The translations under genes were made by a program, and so were the position numbers. From Comamonas fluminis (GTDB taxonomy: Bacteria > Pseudomonadota > Gammaproteobacteria > Burkholderiales > Burkholderiaceae_C), in NCBI RefSeq assembly GCF_019186805.1, contig NZ_CP066783.1:62001-126000 (forward strand): a stretch of DNA of 64,000 bases. The letters are read 5' to 3'. This document shows positions 15,459-63,131 of this stretch, piece by piece; within the stretch, counting starts at the first letter, position 1; the number at the start of each line of letters is the position of its first letter. The notes beneath the pieces are model-generated. The model was not told the origin of the DNA and made no database searches. It worked only from the letters and a program-made list of their open reading frames with translations.

Positions 15459-15503
15459 GACACCAAGCAAGAGCCGCCTCGCGGCGGGGCCGCCCAGGCG
15501 AAG
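15459..15503 (+). repeat. Dispersed GC-rich repeat family B, copy 2
   Basis: A 45 bp block containing GCAAGAGCCGCCTCGCGGCG. The same block, inverted and differing at only three or so positions, lies at 42056-42100, and its first half recurs at 55208-55240. It lies directly beyond the minE stop codon. Confidence 0.85.
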
Positions 15504-17554: not shown

Positions 17555-18304
17555 ATGTCTCCAGAGCTTTTGATCCAGGGCGCCTGTGCCAGCATCACCT
17601 TGCGCCGTCCTGAAGTTGCCAACAAACTGATGCCCGAAGACCTGATGGTGCTGCGCCGCCATATCGACGAGGTCAACGCCAACCCCCATGTGCTGGTGCT
17701 GACGCTGCAGGCCGTGGGCCGGCATTTCTGCAGCGGCTATGACATTGGCGAGATTGCCAACAGCCAGAACGAAGGCAGCTCCTTTGGCGAGATGGTGGAC
17801 GCCATCGAAAACTGCCACGCCGTCACCATCGCGGCCATTCAGGGTGGTGTGTTTGGCGGTGCCACGGATATGGCGCTGGCCTGCGACTTCCGCGTGGGTG
17901 GTGCCAACAGCCAGATGTTCATGCCCGCAGCGCGGCTGGGCCTGCATTTCTATGCCTCGGGCCTGGAGCGTTATGTGACGCGGCTGGGTGTGGATACAGC
18001 CAAGCGCTTGTTTCTGACCTGTGAGAAGCTGCAGGCCCCGGCCATGAAGGACTGCGGTTTTCTGACCGACCTGGTGGATGGCGAAGACATTGCCCCGCGC
18101 GTTGCGCAATTGCAGAACACGCTGGCAGGCATGGCACCGCTGGCGCTGCTGGGCATGAAAAAGCACCTGAACGCCATCGTGCGCGGCGCGCATGACAGAG
18201 CCAGCATTGATGCGGCTGTGCAGGCGACGATTGAATCAGCCGACCTGAAAGAAGGTGGTGCGGCGTGGCGTGAAAAACGCCAGCCGCAGTTCACGGGCCG
18301 TTAA
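17555..18304 (+). CDS. Enoyl-CoA hydratase/isomerase family protein
   Basis: A 249-residue crotonase-fold protein. The oxyanion-hole motifs are visible in GRHFCSGYDIGEI and IQGGVFGGATDMALACDFRV. The usual catalytic Glu of true hydratases is not obvious in GGATDMAL, so activity on an enoyl-CoA is uncertain. The partner reaction could be isomerase- or hydrolase-like. It is transcribed towards the acetoacetyl-CoA synthetase gene. The two stop codons overlap within TTAA at 18301-18304. The frame is open far upstream through minC antisense, but homology starts at the ATG at 17555. Confidence 0.85.
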   Translation: MSPELLIQGACASITLRRPEVANKLMPEDLMVLRRHIDEVNANPHVLVLTLQAVGRHFCSGYDIGEIANSQNEGSSFGEMVDAIENCHAVTIAAIQGGVFGGATDMALACDFRVGGANSQMFMPAARLGLHFYASGLERYVTRLGVDTAKRLFLTCEKLQAPAMKDCGFLTDLVDGEDIAPRVAQLQNTLAGMAPLALLGMKKHLNAIVRGAHDRASIDAAVQATIESADLKEGGAAWREKRQPQFTGR

Positions 18305-20472
18305 GCAGAGGCTCCGGCCTTTGCCAGGTGCTCTTTCGCAAACGCCTCATACCAGCCCAGACAGCCGGGGTTGGCCATGGCGTCTTTGTTGACAACTTTG
18401 TCCAGAGGCTGGCCCAGCAGCAGCTTTTTGATGGGCAGCTCCTGCTTTTTGCCGCTGAGCGTGCGCGGTATCTCGGCCACGGCAAAGATATCGTCGGGCA
18501 CAAAGCGCGGCGACAGGGCGGTGCGAATGGCCGTGTTGATGCGCCCGCGCAGCTCTGCGTCCAGCTCCACCCCGGGGCGCAGGGCCACAAACAGCGGCAT
18601 ATAGCTGTCTTTGCCCAGATATTCCAGGTCCACCACCATGCTGTCCAGCACTTCGGGCAGGGCTTCCACGGCGCTGTAGATCTCGCTGGTGCCCATGCGC
18701 AGGCCGTGGCGGTTGATGGTGGCGTCGCTGCGGCCATAGATGATGCAGCCGCCCTGTGACTGGATGCGTATCCAGTCACCATGCCGCCAGACACCGCCCA
18801 TCTCCGCCGGGCCATCGCCGCCACCGAGCTTGCGGCCGTGACCAGCGGGATACATGTCGAAATAGCTGCTCAGATAGCGTTTACCGAATGGGTCGCCCCC
18901 ACGCTTCCCCACTGCGTGTGGGGCGCTGCCCCCCGAGGGGGCCTTCGCACCTTGAGGCGGCTCGGCGGTGCTCACATCACCCCACAGAAACAGCGGCATG
19001 GACGGAATGGGCTGGGTGCAGACTAGTTCGCCCACCTCGTCCATGACGGGCAGGCCTTGTTCGTTCCAGGCTTCCACGGCAGAGCCCAGCTGCAGGCATT
19101 GCATGACGCCCGGGGCCTGGGGCAGTTCGCGGTTGCCGCCGATAAAGGTGCCCGCGAAGTCGGTGCCGCCCGATAGGTTGTTCCACCAGATGTCGGGGTG
19201 TCCCAGCTTCGCAAACTGCGCTGTGCCCCATTGCTGAACGTCTGGCGGCAGCGGCGAGCCTGTGCTGCCCAGCCCGCGTATGCGCGAGAGGTCGCCGCAG
19301 CGGGAAAGCTCAACCCCGGCCTTCATGCAGTTGGTATAGAAGGCCGCGCCTGAGCCAAAGCTGGTCACGCCCGTCTCGGCGGCAAAGCGCCACAGCGTAC
19401 CCCAGTCGGGCTTGTCTTTGCTGCCGCCGGGGCTGCCGTCAAAGATCACGCAAGTGGTGCCGCCCAGCAGGCCGGATACCTGCGCATTCCACATCACCCA
19501 GCCGGTGGAGCTGTACCAGTGATAGCGCTCGCCCCAGCTGTTGGGGTGGTAGCTGCAGCCAATGTCGTTGTGCAGCGTCTTGAGCTGTACGGCCACCAGC
19601 ACCATGCCGCCATGGCCGTGAACAATGGGCTTGGGCAGGCCGGTGGTGCCGCTGGAATAGACAACCCACAGTGGGTGGTCAAACGGCAGCCACTCGGGCT
19701 CAAAGGCTGCAGTCTCAGCATCATTTCTGGCTGTAACGCTTATGTAATCAGCGGTGTCAGCTATCTTTATTGATATGTCCAGATTCGGCACCAGCACCAC
19801 ATGCTGCACGCTGGGCAGGCCTTCGCGCAGTTGCTGCAGCACTTCGCGGCGGTCAATGTCTTTGCCGGCGTAACGCACGCCATCCACGGCAATCAGCGCC
19901 TTGGGGGTGATCTGCGTGAAGCGGTCCAGCACGGCGTTGGTGCCCATGTCGGGGGCGCAGATGCTCCAGATCGCGCCCAGGCTGGCACAGGCCAGAAAGG
20001 CGATGATGGCTTCAGGAATATTGGGCAGATAAGCGGCCACCCGATCGCCCTTGCCCACGCCTTGCGCGCGCAGGTGCAGGGCCAGCGCGGCCACCTGGCG
20101 CTGCAGGTCGGGCCAGCTCAGCTCGCGGTGCAGGCCTAGCTCGTTGCGGCTGATGACGGCTGGCATGCCTGCCGCATGGGCGGGCTGCACATGGCGCAGC
20201 ACCTGGCGTGTGTAGTTCATCTGCGCACCGGGAAACCACTGCGCACCGGGCATGACGTTCCTGGCCAGCACCGCGCTGTGGGGCGTAGGGGACTGCAGAT
20301 CGAAGTAGTCCCAGACGCTTTGCCAGAACGCGTCCAGATCCGTGGTGGACCAGCGCCACAGCGCGTCATAGCTATCAAAGCTCAGGCCGCGCGTGCTGCG
20401 CAGCCAGTCCTGGTAGCGGCGTATCTGTGGAACAAAAGCGGGCGGGGTGGAGTGGGGATGTGCAGTAGCCAT
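18301..20472 (-). CDS. Acetoacetyl-CoA synthetase with repeat-derived in-frame segments
   Basis: A 723-residue acetoacetate-CoA ligase. The adenylate-forming signature VVYSSGTTGLPKPIVHG lies near 270-286, GSTGSPL near 402-408, WNNLSGGTDFAG near 430, and the C-terminal KxxE-type lysine in LSGKKQELPIKKLLLG. The family is usually about 650-670 residues. The excess sits in three places: about 232-254 (DISIKIADTADYISVTARND), 501-526 (Gly/Ala/Pro-rich, beginning STAEPPQG) and 543-560 (AGHGRKLGGGDGPAEM). The first two correspond to DNA resembling the dispersed repeats of this window. It activates acetoacetate for lipid or PHB metabolism in the cytosol. Confidence 0.93.
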   Translation of the reverse strand: MATAHPHSTPPAFVPQIRRYQDWLRSTRGLSFDSYDALWRWSTTDLDAFWQSVWDYFDLQSPTPHSAVLARNVMPGAQWFPGAQMNYTRQVLRHVQPAHAAGMPAVISRNELGLHRELSWPDLQRQVAALALHLRAQGVGKGDRVAAYLPNIPEAIIAFLACASLGAIWSICAPDMGTNAVLDRFTQITPKALIAVDGVRYAGKDIDRREVLQQLREGLPSVQHVVLVPNLDISIKIADTADYISVTARNDAETAAFEPEWLPFDHPLWVVYSSGTTGLPKPIVHGHGGMVLVAVQLKTLHNDIGCSYHPNSWGERYHWYSSTGWVMWNAQVSGLLGGTTCVIFDGSPGGSKDKPDWGTLWRFAAETGVTSFGSGAAFYTNCMKAGVELSRCGDLSRIRGLGSTGSPLPPDVQQWGTAQFAKLGHPDIWWNNLSGGTDFAGTFIGGNRELPQAPGVMQCLQLGSAVEAWNEQGLPVMDEVGELVCTQPIPSMPLFLWGDVSTAEPPQGAKAPSGGSAPHAVGKRGGDPFGKRYLSSYFDMYPAGHGRKLGGGDGPAEMGGVWRHGDWIRIQSQGGCIIYGRSDATINRHGLRMGTSEIYSAVEALPEVLDSMVVDLEYLGKDSYMPLFVALRPGVELDAELRGRINTAIRTALSPRFVPDDIFAVAEIPRTLSGKKQELPIKKLLLGQPLDKVVNKDAMANPGCLGWYEAFAKEHLAKAGASA
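18895..18972 (-). repeat. Family B-like GC-rich repeat inside acetoacetyl-CoA synthetase
   Basis: On the minus strand this segment reads GAGCCGCCTCAAGGTGCGAA and then CCCCCTCGGGGGGCAGCGCC, the palindromic style of the intergenic family B blocks. It stays in frame and encodes about 26 Gly/Ala/Pro/Lys-rich residues absent from the usual ligase core. Confidence 0.65.
19711..19779 (-). repeat. Family A repeat inside acetoacetyl-CoA synthetase
   Basis: On the minus strand it contains AAAGATAGCTGACACCGCTG followed by ATTACATAAGCGTTACAGCC. It matches the GATAGCTG...GCT...ATAAGCG order of intergenic family A. It is in frame and codes for about 23 residues between the N-terminal subdomain and the ATP-binding motif. 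Confidence 0.65.
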
Positions 20473-42055: not shown

Positions 42056-42100
42056 CTTCGCTTGGGCGGCCCCGCCGCGAGGCGGCTCTTGCTCGGCGTC
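42056..42100 (-). repeat. Dispersed GC-rich repeat family B, copy 4
   Basis: An inverted near-identical copy (about 42 of 45 bases) of 15459-15503. It lies in the gap between the regulator and kinase genes. Confidence 0.85.
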
Positions 42101-55057: not shown

Positions 55058-55134
<77 letters not shown>

Positions 55135-55169: not shown

Positions 55170-55207
55170 CGTTTGCATCCCAGAAAACCGGCGTGCTCTG
55201 ACAGAGA

Positions 55208-55330
55208 GATGCCGAGCAAGAGCCGCCTCGCGGCGAGGGCATCGTCCCCCTCCCATAGCGCGCAGCGCGTAGAGAGAGGGGGAAGGCGCGATAGCGCCTC
55301 AAGGGGAGTTCATAAAGAACTTCAGGGGGT
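55208..55330. repeat. Dispersed GC-rich repeat family B, copy 5 (extended)
   Basis: It opens with CCGAGCAAGAGCCGCCTCGC, shared with 15459-15503. GCGCGCAGCGCG and GGCGCGATAGCGCC palindromes follow, then CTCAAGGGGAG. It fills the space between the tRNA terminator and the gdhA stop codon. Confidence 0.8.
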
Positions 55331-62613: not shown

Positions 62614-63002
62614 AAAAGAAATCTCCAGAGGTTCCAGAAAGCGTCTGGTGGGGCAGCCGGCTGCGTAGCGGCGGGTTGCTGGTGCGTAATGCAATGCGGG
62701 GGGAGTGCACCGATGGTGCCAAAGCCCGCAAAAGGGCAGAGTAGGTGCGTATCCAGTTGTAGCGACAGCAGTCCATGAGGGTTGGGTGCTGCCTGAAGGC
62801 CTGTTGTGCACGAGGTTCCGAGCATCACAGCCATACCCTGAATATGCATTGAAATGCGATGTCTGCATTCGCGGTTGAAGAAATTTCCTGGGAGAGCGAT
62901 TACTTTTTCAGAGCCCGTTGCTTCTATCTGCGATAGGCAAGTGCAGGTCAAAGCAGGGCTGAGCCCACGACAAAGCACCACCCCTTAGAATGACGGGCTT
63001 CG
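62614..63002. other. Gene-free leader between gltS and the metH riboswitch
   Basis: No gene is supported in this 389 bp stretch. It contains the divergent upstream regions of gltS and metH. A TAGAAT -10-like box at 62986-62991 fits a start just ahead of the riboswitch, but no good -35 box is seen. Confidence 0.6.
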
Positions 63003-63091
63003 CCTCGAGGAGCGCTGCAGCTGCTGCCATGCATGGCCGGTCAGGCTCGGGGTCGGCAGGACATGTTCCTGTCTTATCAACGGCGCTCACC
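63003..63091 (+). ncRNA. S-adenosylhomocysteine (SAH) riboswitch
   Basis: The conserved core is present in order: CTCGAGGAGCGCTGCAGC, then CAGGCTCGG (about 63042-63050), then AACGGCGCTCACC (about 63079-63091). GAGCGC at 63010-63015 can pair with GGCGCTC at 63082-63088 to form the pseudoknot. It stands 41 bp ahead of the metH start. Family knowledge: SAH riboswitches activate SAH-recycling genes (ahcY, metH, metF) when SAH rises. Confidence 0.92.
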
Positions 63092-63131
63092 TGTTTTCGA
63101 TTCTGTTTCTGGTTTTCACACAGGTGAGCTG

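What the first reader, a model, noticed from the sequence alone, without database searches (positions are those of the whole stretch)
18793..19779. Acetoacetyl-CoA synthetase carries in-frame segments that look like the window's own dispersed repeats
The ligase is 50-70 residues longer than usual for its family. The excess falls in three blocks. Block 19711-19779 shows the family A word order (GATAGCTG then ATAAGCG). Block 18895-18972 has the GC-rich palindromic style of family B. A third low-complexity block lies at about 18793-18846 (GHGRKLGGGDGPAE). All keep the frame. Intergenic repeats becoming coding sequence, as described for palindromic elements in Rickettsia, is rarely noticed in Comamonadaceae.
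Basis: partly seen in the sequence, partly recalled or inferred. Interest (0 to 1): 0.72.

Follow-up and report, generated by a model that had tools for sequence, protein, structure and literature searches.

The report
Mobile DNA repeats inside enzyme genes
Short dispersed DNA repeats that mostly sit between genes have ended up, in frame, inside a fat-metabolism enzyme of this bacterium and inside several other conserved enzymes of its family, adding or replacing stretches of the proteins.

Summary
The ligase (723 aa) is acetoacetate--CoA ligase (AACS). Block B (18880-18975) is an in-frame insertion of a dispersed GC-rich hairpin repeat. The repeat has 7 other copies in this genome, and block B adds 28 residues over the nearest relative. 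It is at this site in 6 of 117 distinct AACS sequences, scattered over the tree. A second AACS loop holds the same repeat or remnants in 12 of 117, once as two tandem copies. One translated copy matches 79 of 250 Comamonadaceae genomes; opened copies lie inside PheS, GcvT, a biotin carboxylase, a FemAB-like protein, DUF2126 and others. Block A (19710-19782) derives from AT-rich family A: 37 of 38 profile hits in 275 kb of AACS sequence fall there. It adds no length, so it replaced a loop rather than lengthening it. Block C is a conserved segment of this AACS clade, not a repeat. How it moves, and whether the peptide does anything, is not shown.

The parts
18301..20472 (-). acetoacetate--CoA ligase (AACS) gene, 723 codons + stop, host of the repeats
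   Evidence: dN/dS 0.107-0.119 against four Comamonas relatives, 0.20-0.27 against two Acidovorax-clade ones
18880..18975 (-). Block B: 96-nt in-frame stretch (residues 500-531, VSTAEPPQGAKAPSGGSAPHAVGKRGGDPFGK) in place of 4 codons in the empty relative L009; net +28 residues
18895..18968 (-). Core of block B that matches dispersed family-B copies elsewhere in the genome
19710..19782 (-). Block A: family-A-derived loop, residues about 231-255; third-position GC 0.30 (residues 233-252) against 0.80 in the rest of the gene
   Evidence: 36.0 bits, E 6.6e-10
19737..19765 (-). Exact family A motif GATAGCTG-N16-AAGCG inside block A
18796..18846 (-). Block C: residues 543-559, conserved segment of this AACS clade, not a repeat
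19195..19206 (-). Site 2 (residues 423-426), empty in this gene but holding family B or its remnants in 13 of 120 aligned AACS rows (12 of 117 distinct)

Best explanation
AACS of this Comamonas has taken in copies of two unrelated dispersed repeats. (1) Block B is an in-frame insertion of family B, a GC-rich hairpin element of roughly 75-100 bp: a fixed 16-nt loop between copy-specific complementary arms, followed by a constant GC-rich 3' part; it also forms tandem arrays. A coding-competent subfamily with an 84-nt unit (28 codons, open in 5 of 6 frames) encodes a Gly/Pro/Ser/Ala-rich peptide. It is tolerated where it lands in a loop and keeps the frame, and it has entered AACS at two loops and at least nine other conserved protein families. 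(2) Block A is an older replacement of a variable loop by family A, with no change in length; it is found in lineages where family A is abundant and, elsewhere, has faded into GC-rich codons or was never there. Shown: sequence identity of the copies, frame, scattered distribution, tandem copies, co-occurrence. Inferred: that B moves as a non-autonomous element whose insertions into genes survive only when in frame, that the sites are surface loops, and that the peptides are tolerated rather than selected. Unknown: the mobilising enzyme.
For: Own genome: 7 further B copies; 50 family A pattern hits against 1 reversed control. Block A: 37 of 38 profile hits at E<1 in 275,394 bases of 120 AACS genes are at this place and strand; the remaining hit (E 0.51) is on the other strand at the same place. 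Rare codons, in 39 A-type sequences of the Comamonas and Acidovorax groups: ATA is 52 of 57 Ile codons in block A but 73 of 1065 elsewhere; AGA/CGA are 25 of 25 Arg codons in block A but 33 of 1501 elsewhere. Block B: 6 carriers need 6 changes on the AACS tree, and site 2's 13 rows need 8. All 109 rows without any insert at site 1 have a segment of the same length (11 residues), with no deletion scars. In pairs with Q, inserts are 86-97% alike where the 180-nt flanks are 76-85% alike; the residue after the insert's FG follows the lineage (K in the three Comamonas, S in L014 and L015, E in L042 and L269). L082 has two tandem 84-nt copies in frame, and L216 four tandem 27-residue copies in a FemAB-like protein. 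Internal in-frame copies in proteins recognised by Pfam or NCBIfam: PheS, GcvT, biotin carboxylase, FemAB_like, DUF2126, MoCF_biosynth, MeaB, OHCU/M20 fusion, DEAH-type helicase. Arms covary: mean complementary run 6.2 against 3.0 when arms are re-dealt among 65 copies (maximum of 200 deals 3.4). Purifying selection on the gene.
Against: The ends of the site-1 insert are the same in Comamonas and in most Acidovorax-clade carriers (VST/VSS...PFG), which plain independent insertion does not predict unless those ends belong to the element or the target is specific. Two close pairs (L090-L091, L042-L269) show no excess identity of the insert over its flanks. No target-site duplication was proved: direct repeats between left arm and right flank exceed re-dealt pairs (5.06 against 3.20, 33 copies) but tandem copies inflate this. 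No mobilising enzyme was found: a RAYT-like gene below the curated cut-off is present in 50 of 53 genomes, none above it. Block A adds no length, so an 'insertion' there is only inferred. Synonymous-codon identity between the Comamonas and Acidovorax groups is lower in block A than in the rest (0.61 against 0.69), so there is no sign of DNA-level constraint. One Acidovorax (L014) has 164 family A motifs in its genome but no motif in AACS. No protein or activity data.
Confidence: 0.87

Rival explanations
1. Block B entered AACS once, before Comamonas and Acidovorax split, and was lost many times; today's carriers are relics.
For: The insert has much the same two ends in the carriers and the same reading frame; some Paracidovorax and Acidovorax carry other inserts at the same spot that could be worn remnants (L018, L033, L044, L056, L057).
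Against: 6 carriers need 6 changes on the tree (quick tree, the placing of L090 and L091 is unresolved). In pairs with Q, inserts are 86-97% alike where flanks are 76-85% alike. All 109 empty sites have one and the same length, 11 residues in the segment compared, with no scar.
Confidence: 0.15
2. The block B allele spread between species by homologous recombination of AACS gene fragments.
For: Same ends in both genera; Comamonas and Acidovorax are close enough for occasional exchange (inference).
Against: The residue right after the insert and the 180-nt flanks are lineage-specific, so any exchanged tract would have to be hardly longer than the insert. The same element also sits in a second AACS loop and in other genes.
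Confidence: 0.15
3. The block B peptide is a functional module kept by selection, for instance a flexible linker or recognition tag, and is spread because it is useful.
For: The same frame is used at site 1 and in most site-2 copies; tandem amplification in frame occurs in AACS, GcvT and a FemAB-like protein.
Against: Other genes use other frames and the opposite strand (FemAB-like, helicase), and L028 and L077 AACS read part of it in another frame. Most aligned AACS lack it, and at site 2 shortened forms occur (L103, L091). The search is biased to one frame because its query was one frame.
Confidence: 0.1
4. The resemblance of block A to family A is chance or codon drift in a variable loop.
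For: No length change; residues (V/I)-A-D and A-R-x-D-A are shared with AACS lacking the motif.
Against: 37 of 38 hits at one place; rare-codon use. In the genus, the 17 genomes whose AACS has a profile hit hold 30-107 genomic motif copies; of the 30 with AACS but no hit, 20 hold 5 or fewer and 10 hold 14-52. Kinship between genomes was not corrected for.
Confidence: 0.05

Closest known systems
Rickettsia palindromic elements (RPE) and the protein-coding palindromic repeats of Wolbachia
   Same: Dispersed palindromic repeats found in frame inside conserved protein genes (passages in PMC10969869, and PMC2229807; Ogata 2000, 2002 and 2005 themselves not read, only seen as references; PMC186582 not held).
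   Different: RPE are described as Rickettsia-specific and 105-146 bp; here the host is a Comamonas, the unit is roughly 75-100 bp, the arms vary from copy to copy, and in-frame tandem arrays occur.
BRE, Beta-proteobacterial repeat element (PMC3110155)
   Same: 75-91 bp in Bordetella, GC-rich, usually intergenic, tandem arrays, present in Delftia, Acidovorax and Polaromonas, some copies entirely within coding sequences (section 14 read). The six genomes of the Delftia clade here hold 2, 2, 6, 13, 16 and 17 B matches against 13 BRE reported for D. acidovorans SPH-1.
   Different: The BRE sequence is not in the text I could read, so identity with family B is likely but untested; the section read reports no reading frames, named proteins or recurrent sites within genes.
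ERIC, NEMIS/Correia and other bacterial MITEs with intragenic fusions; palindromic repeats reported in P. aeruginosa enzyme genes
   Same: Small repeats fused in frame to genes (PMC2229807 passages); coding-region palindromic repeats in P. aeruginosa (PMC4496055, abstract passage).
   Different: Different hosts; sequences were not compared here. Classical terminal inverted repeats were not shown for B.
REP elements with RAYT transposases
   Same: Hairpin repeats, mostly intergenic (recalled).
   Different: REPs are 20-40 bp (start of the abstract of PMC3733652); no RAYT above the curated cut-off in 53 genomes.

Membership tests
Acetoacetate--CoA ligase (AACS) | Score above curated NCBIfam cut-offs | tested here: met
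   NF002937 946.5 against 639; TIGR01217 653.7 against 520.9
Family B of this genome (dispersed GC-rich hairpin repeat) | Fixed loop GCCGGGCCGCCCCAAG-like, complementary arms, 3' core | tested here: met
   Block B has GCCGAGCCGCCTCAAG with 5-nt arms GCACC/GGTGC; 7 other own-genome copies
Family A of this genome | GATAGCTG-N16-AAGCG and profile match | tested here: met
RPE (Rickettsia palindromic element) | Rickettsia-specific | tested here: not met
   Nearest relatives of the gene are Comamonas
RPE (Rickettsia palindromic element) | 105-146 bp palindrome | tested here: not met
   B is 70-89 nt from loop to 3' end in 33 copies, plus a left arm of about 5-11 nt; 84-nt tandem period in L082
RPE-like behaviour (in-frame inside conserved genes) | Open reading frame through the repeat within a conserved gene | tested here: met
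   AACS, PheS, GcvT, biotin carboxylase and others
BRE (Beta-proteobacterial repeat element) | Sequence of the B. pertussis reference copy | not testable with these tools
   Sequence and supplements not held
BRE (Beta-proteobacterial repeat element) | About 75-91 bp, tandem arrays, in Comamonadaceae and other Betaproteobacteria | tested here: met
   Neighbouring copies mostly 78-94 bp apart, read off the places listed (one pair 108); matches in 20 of 200 Burkholderiales genomes of nine family codes
REP/RAYT | Cognate RAYT transposase | tested here: inconclusive
   50 of 53 genomes have a NF047646 match at E 0.001, 0 of 53 over the curated cut-off; link to copy number not tested
MITE | Terminal inverted repeats and target-site duplication | tested here: inconclusive
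   Direct repeats above re-dealt pairs but inflated by tandem copies

The most novel reading that the evidence does not exclude
A coding-competent subfamily of family B (84-nt unit, open in five of six frames) is a genome-wide supplier of in-frame peptide insertions in Comamonadaceae: it has entered conserved enzymes in many genera, returns to the same loops, multiplies there in tandem and then decays. That would make it a Rickettsia-type 'selfish DNA in proteins' system in free-living, large-genome, GC-rich bacteria that can be grown and manipulated.
Probability: 0.6. Interest if true: 0.78.

Novelty: new variant of a known kind. Interest (0 to 1): 0.66.

Why it matters
In-frame palindromic repeats are best known from obligate intracellular bacteria (recalled), where experiments are hard. 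Here the same outcome appears in free-living bacteria, in genes such as PheS (essential in bacteria, recalled), with empty and filled sites in close relatives and shortened forms beside full copies. That makes the origin, mobility and cost of protein-coding repeats testable in growable strains. It also warns annotators that odd Gly/Pro/Ser-rich stretches in Comamonadaceae enzymes may be repeat-derived.

Tried and rejected
Rejected: block C as a repeat. Rejected: block A as an explanation of extra length. Not supported: DNA-level constraint on block A (synonymous-codon identity lower than in the rest). Not supported: a RAYT above cut-off as the mobiliser of B. Nothing found: an Rfam family for A or B at gathering thresholds (6 sources, 2 matches, a tRNA and an SAH riboswitch). 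Little gained: plasmid search (3 records, one under a Fic-family gene); further paper searches. Scripts that failed: one search printed nothing (pattern too strict); one search ended in an error after printing its table; one search ended in an error after printing dN/dS and lengths, so the GC content of B copies was not obtained. The classification of site-2 copies and remnants is by eye on the aligned words (least sure: L067, L083, L091, L101, L103, L107).

Dropped or limited: of 128 AACS loci, L001 and L089 (the window gene itself) were replaced by the query and 7 rows identical to another were dropped, giving 120 rows; three more pairs differ only outside the compared part, so 117 are distinct. 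Some named and unnamed loci are the same genome reached twice. The tree is a quick one without bootstrap. Part of the listing was cut from view; the site counts rest. Of these 30, 8 are AACS by their sequence, 16 were scanned for domains (10, 10, 4 in both), and 6 in short frames were not scanned; of the 16, L274, L275 and L288 gave no Pfam family at E 1e-5. Copies N-terminal to a domain (GluQRS L270, TruB L284, E1 beta L290, PcaD-like L276, ABC ATPase L271) may be untranslated leaders, because frames were read from stop to stop; they are not counted as internal. In the own genome, of 8 B copies 6 have a spanning frame of 60 codons or more and only 2 of these (AACS, FemAB-like) were shown to be genes; of 46 exact-spacing family A copies 13 have such a frame and only AACS and two others (L145, L180) were scanned. 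In one search, 27 of 28 handles were searched (L035 not held). In one search the 65 copies include tandem neighbours, AACS copies and at least one doubtful match (L223).
Full report
WHAT THE GENE IS. The window gene 18301-20472 (minus strand) encodes acetoacetate--CoA ligase of 723 aa. Its nearest solved relative is S. lividans AACS 4wd1, 658 aa. The nearest row in the alignment is L009 (record titled Comamonas testosteroni NFYY023), 92% over 600 kept columns. The gene is under purifying selection: dN/dS is 0.107-0.119 against L009, L090, L091 and L038, and 0.20 and 0.27 against L014 and L015.

THE LENGTH CLAIM. Compared with 4wd1 the protein is 65 aa longer, but much of that is normal for its AACS clade. 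Between residues 14 and 715 Q has 702 residues, L009 has 674 and the median of the 120 aligned rows is 681. Block B alone accounts for the difference to L009 (96 nt in place of 12).

BLOCK C. The segment AGHGRKLGGGDGPAEMG is present in 112 of 120 rows and missing only in the divergent clade L127-L134; it is absent in 4wd1. It is an old clade-specific segment, not a repeat of this genome.

BLOCK B IS A DISPERSED REPEAT INSERTED IN FRAME. DNA 18895-18968 has 7 further copies in the genome. In the genus 37 of 53 genomes have at least one match at E 0.001. In a draw of 200 Burkholderiales genomes 20 do, under nine family codes (at most four candidates per genome were scored, so copy numbers are lower bounds). 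Among the 120 aligned AACS rows the insert is at this site in Q, L090, L091 (Comamonas), L014 (Acidovorax sp. Leaf191), L015 and L042; five Paracidovorax or Acidovorax sequences have other inserts at the spot; the other 109 have the same native length there. Two more carriers came later, L264 with tandem copies and L269. On a tree built without the blocks the six carriers need six changes.

A SECOND SITE IN THE SAME ENZYME. Before the D/IWWNN motif (Q residues 423-426) the same repeat, or words of it, stand in L016 and L125 (identical; Delftia sp. PS-11), L028 (A. temperans), L067 and L077 (Curvibacter), L082 (two tandem 84-nt copies), L083, L123 and L126. Shortened forms stand in L091, L101, L103 and L107. 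These thirteen rows need eight changes. GAGPSQAAKASPGGSDPHAVGERGGD (L123), GAEPSQAGKAPLGERGGD (L103) and GAGPSAPLGERGGD (L091) read as stepwise decay (inference). In alignments to 4wd1 and to bacterial acetyl-CoA synthetases both sites fall where lengths vary, which fits surface loops, but no structure could be predicted.

OTHER GENES. Searching 250 Comamonadaceae genomes with one translated copy gives 79 genomes and 54 of 141 genera with a match at E 0.001; matches lie in long and in short open frames. Internal in-frame copies in proteins with domain support are: PheS (L283, class II core split into two stretches), GcvT (L282, tandem, split into two stretches), biotin carboxylase subunit (L287, split into two stretches), DUF2126 (L268 and L277, same site, one match across it), MoCF_biosynth (L279, across; L289 has the repeat right after the matched part of the same kind of protein), a MeaB/mutase fusion (L286, across), FemAB_like (own genome L002; L213; L216 with four tandem 27-residue copies; opposite orientation), an OHCU decarboxylase/M20 fusion (L220, L226, between the two domains) and a DEAH-type helicase (L224, near its N-terminus; only below-cut-off matches span it). 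With AACS that is ten gene families. In the window's own genome, 2 of 8 B copies were shown to lie in such genes, AACS and the FemAB-like protein. A composite 84-nt unit is open in 5 of 6 frames, so an insertion whose length is a multiple of three would usually be readable.

ANATOMY OF FAMILY B. Copies share a 16-nt loop flanked by arms that differ from copy to copy but tend to stay complementary. The mean perfect run is 6.2 against 3.0 when right arms are re-dealt among 65 copies, and the highest of 200 deals was 3.4. In the AACS site-1 copies of Comamonas the arms are short, GCACC/GGTGC. A stretch of the left arm often recurs beyond the 3' end (5.06 against 3.20, 33 copies, highest of 300 deals 4.45), but tandem copies contribute to this. 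No Rfam family matches at gathering thresholds in the 6 sources tried.

BLOCK A IS FAMILY A, BUT NOT EXTRA LENGTH. Family A (GATAGCTG-N16-AAGCG with AT-rich surroundings) is dispersed in the genome: 50 pattern hits against 1 control. A profile of 41 genomic copies (the AACS, L145, L175 and L180 copies left out) finds 38 hits at E<1 in 275,394 bases of AACS coding DNA. Of these 37 are at block A on the coding strand, best in L031 (A. radicis, 48.6 bits), with Q at 36.0 bits; the one other (E 0.51) is antisense at the same place. On the tree the 37 need 12 changes; counting low third-position GC as well, 52 rows need 9 (these 52 include L127 of the divergent clade). Third-position GC of block A in Q is 0.30 against 0.80 elsewhere, and rare codons are concentrated there. 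Yet AACS without the motif have the same length here or are longer, so the element overwrote the loop or its insertion was balanced by a deletion (inference).

BLOCK A AND FAMILY ABUNDANCE. In the genus, the 17 genomes whose AACS has a profile hit hold 30-107 genomic motif copies. Of the 30 genomes with AACS but no hit, 20 hold 5 or fewer and 10 hold 14-52. Among the 27 genomes, the 10 with a profile hit hold 15-220 copies. Of 14 with neither hit nor low third-position GC, 13 hold 3 or fewer and one (L014) holds 164; three with low GC but no hit hold 1, 2 and 18. Related genomes are not independent, so this is association only. Two further family A copies of the own genome lie inside reading frames with domains, an AIRS protein that looks like ThiL (L180, 33.7 bits; name recalled) and a VanW/glycosyltransferase protein (L145, 34.7 bits, between its domains); both were left out of the profile.

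HOW IT MOST LIKELY WORKS. B behaves as a small non-autonomous hairpin element whose hits in genes survive when they fall in a loop and keep the frame; in-frame copies then sometimes multiply in tandem and decay. Shown: copies, frames, sites, shortened forms, tandem units. Inferred: mobility, neutrality, loop position. The shared ends of the site-1 insert in two genera leave open recurrent targeted insertion, a single old insertion with many losses, or exchange of very short tracts. In pairs with Q the inserts are more alike than their flanks, with lineage-specific neighbours, which favours recurrent arrival; two very close pairs show no such excess.

COMPARISON. It works like Rickettsia palindromic elements (passages in PMC10969869, and PMC2229807) but is not one by host or size. 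It is probably the BRE of Betaproteobacteria (PMC3110155, passages, section 14), whose authors noted copies within coding sequences; the BRE sequence could not be compared. Palindromic repeats in enzyme genes have also been reported for P. aeruginosa (PMC4496055, abstract passage). I found no report of in-frame copies in named Comamonadaceae proteins in the listings of searches, which cover only open-licence papers.

Noticed in passing
window 15459-15503, 42056-42100, 55205-55238: A third GC-rich repeat family (GACACCAAGCAAGAGCCGCCTCGCGGCGGGG...), 93-94% alike between copies, distinct from family B; similar words follow family A copies at L147 and L144, as if composite.
   Followed up: no
L216:954-2558 (G035), L213, L002 (own genome G000:C2:3057131-3057204): FemAB-like protein with family B in frame, in four tandem 27-residue copies in L216.
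   Followed up: partly
family B copies, e.g. L227, L005, L137, L251: Copy-specific complementary arms around a fixed 16-nt loop, in some copies with a further direct repeat of the arm beyond the 3' end; suggests an unusual insertion mechanism that copies target sequence.
   Followed up: partly
L175 about 1500-1529: A family A copy reads as what looks like the signal peptide of a protein (MKKIAAGAFVASAGLGFLTQSAWA), 27.0 bits; could be coincidence.
   Followed up: no
L018, L033, L044, L056, L057 (Paracidovorax/Acidovorax AACS, site 1): Different inserts at the same loop as block B, ending in words such as GGDPHG or GHPAG; possibly worn remnants of the same element.
   Followed up: no
L076 (record titled Akkermansia muciniphila MAG): Its AACS sits inside the Limnohabitans clade; the contig is probably mislabelled or mis-binned.
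   Followed up: no
window 63001-63095 and 55058-55131: SAH riboswitch and a tRNA by Rfam.
   Followed up: no
Rhodoferax antarcticus plasmid NZ_CP019241.1:24215-24290: Family B match under an annotated Fic family protein gene; frame not examined.
   Followed up: no
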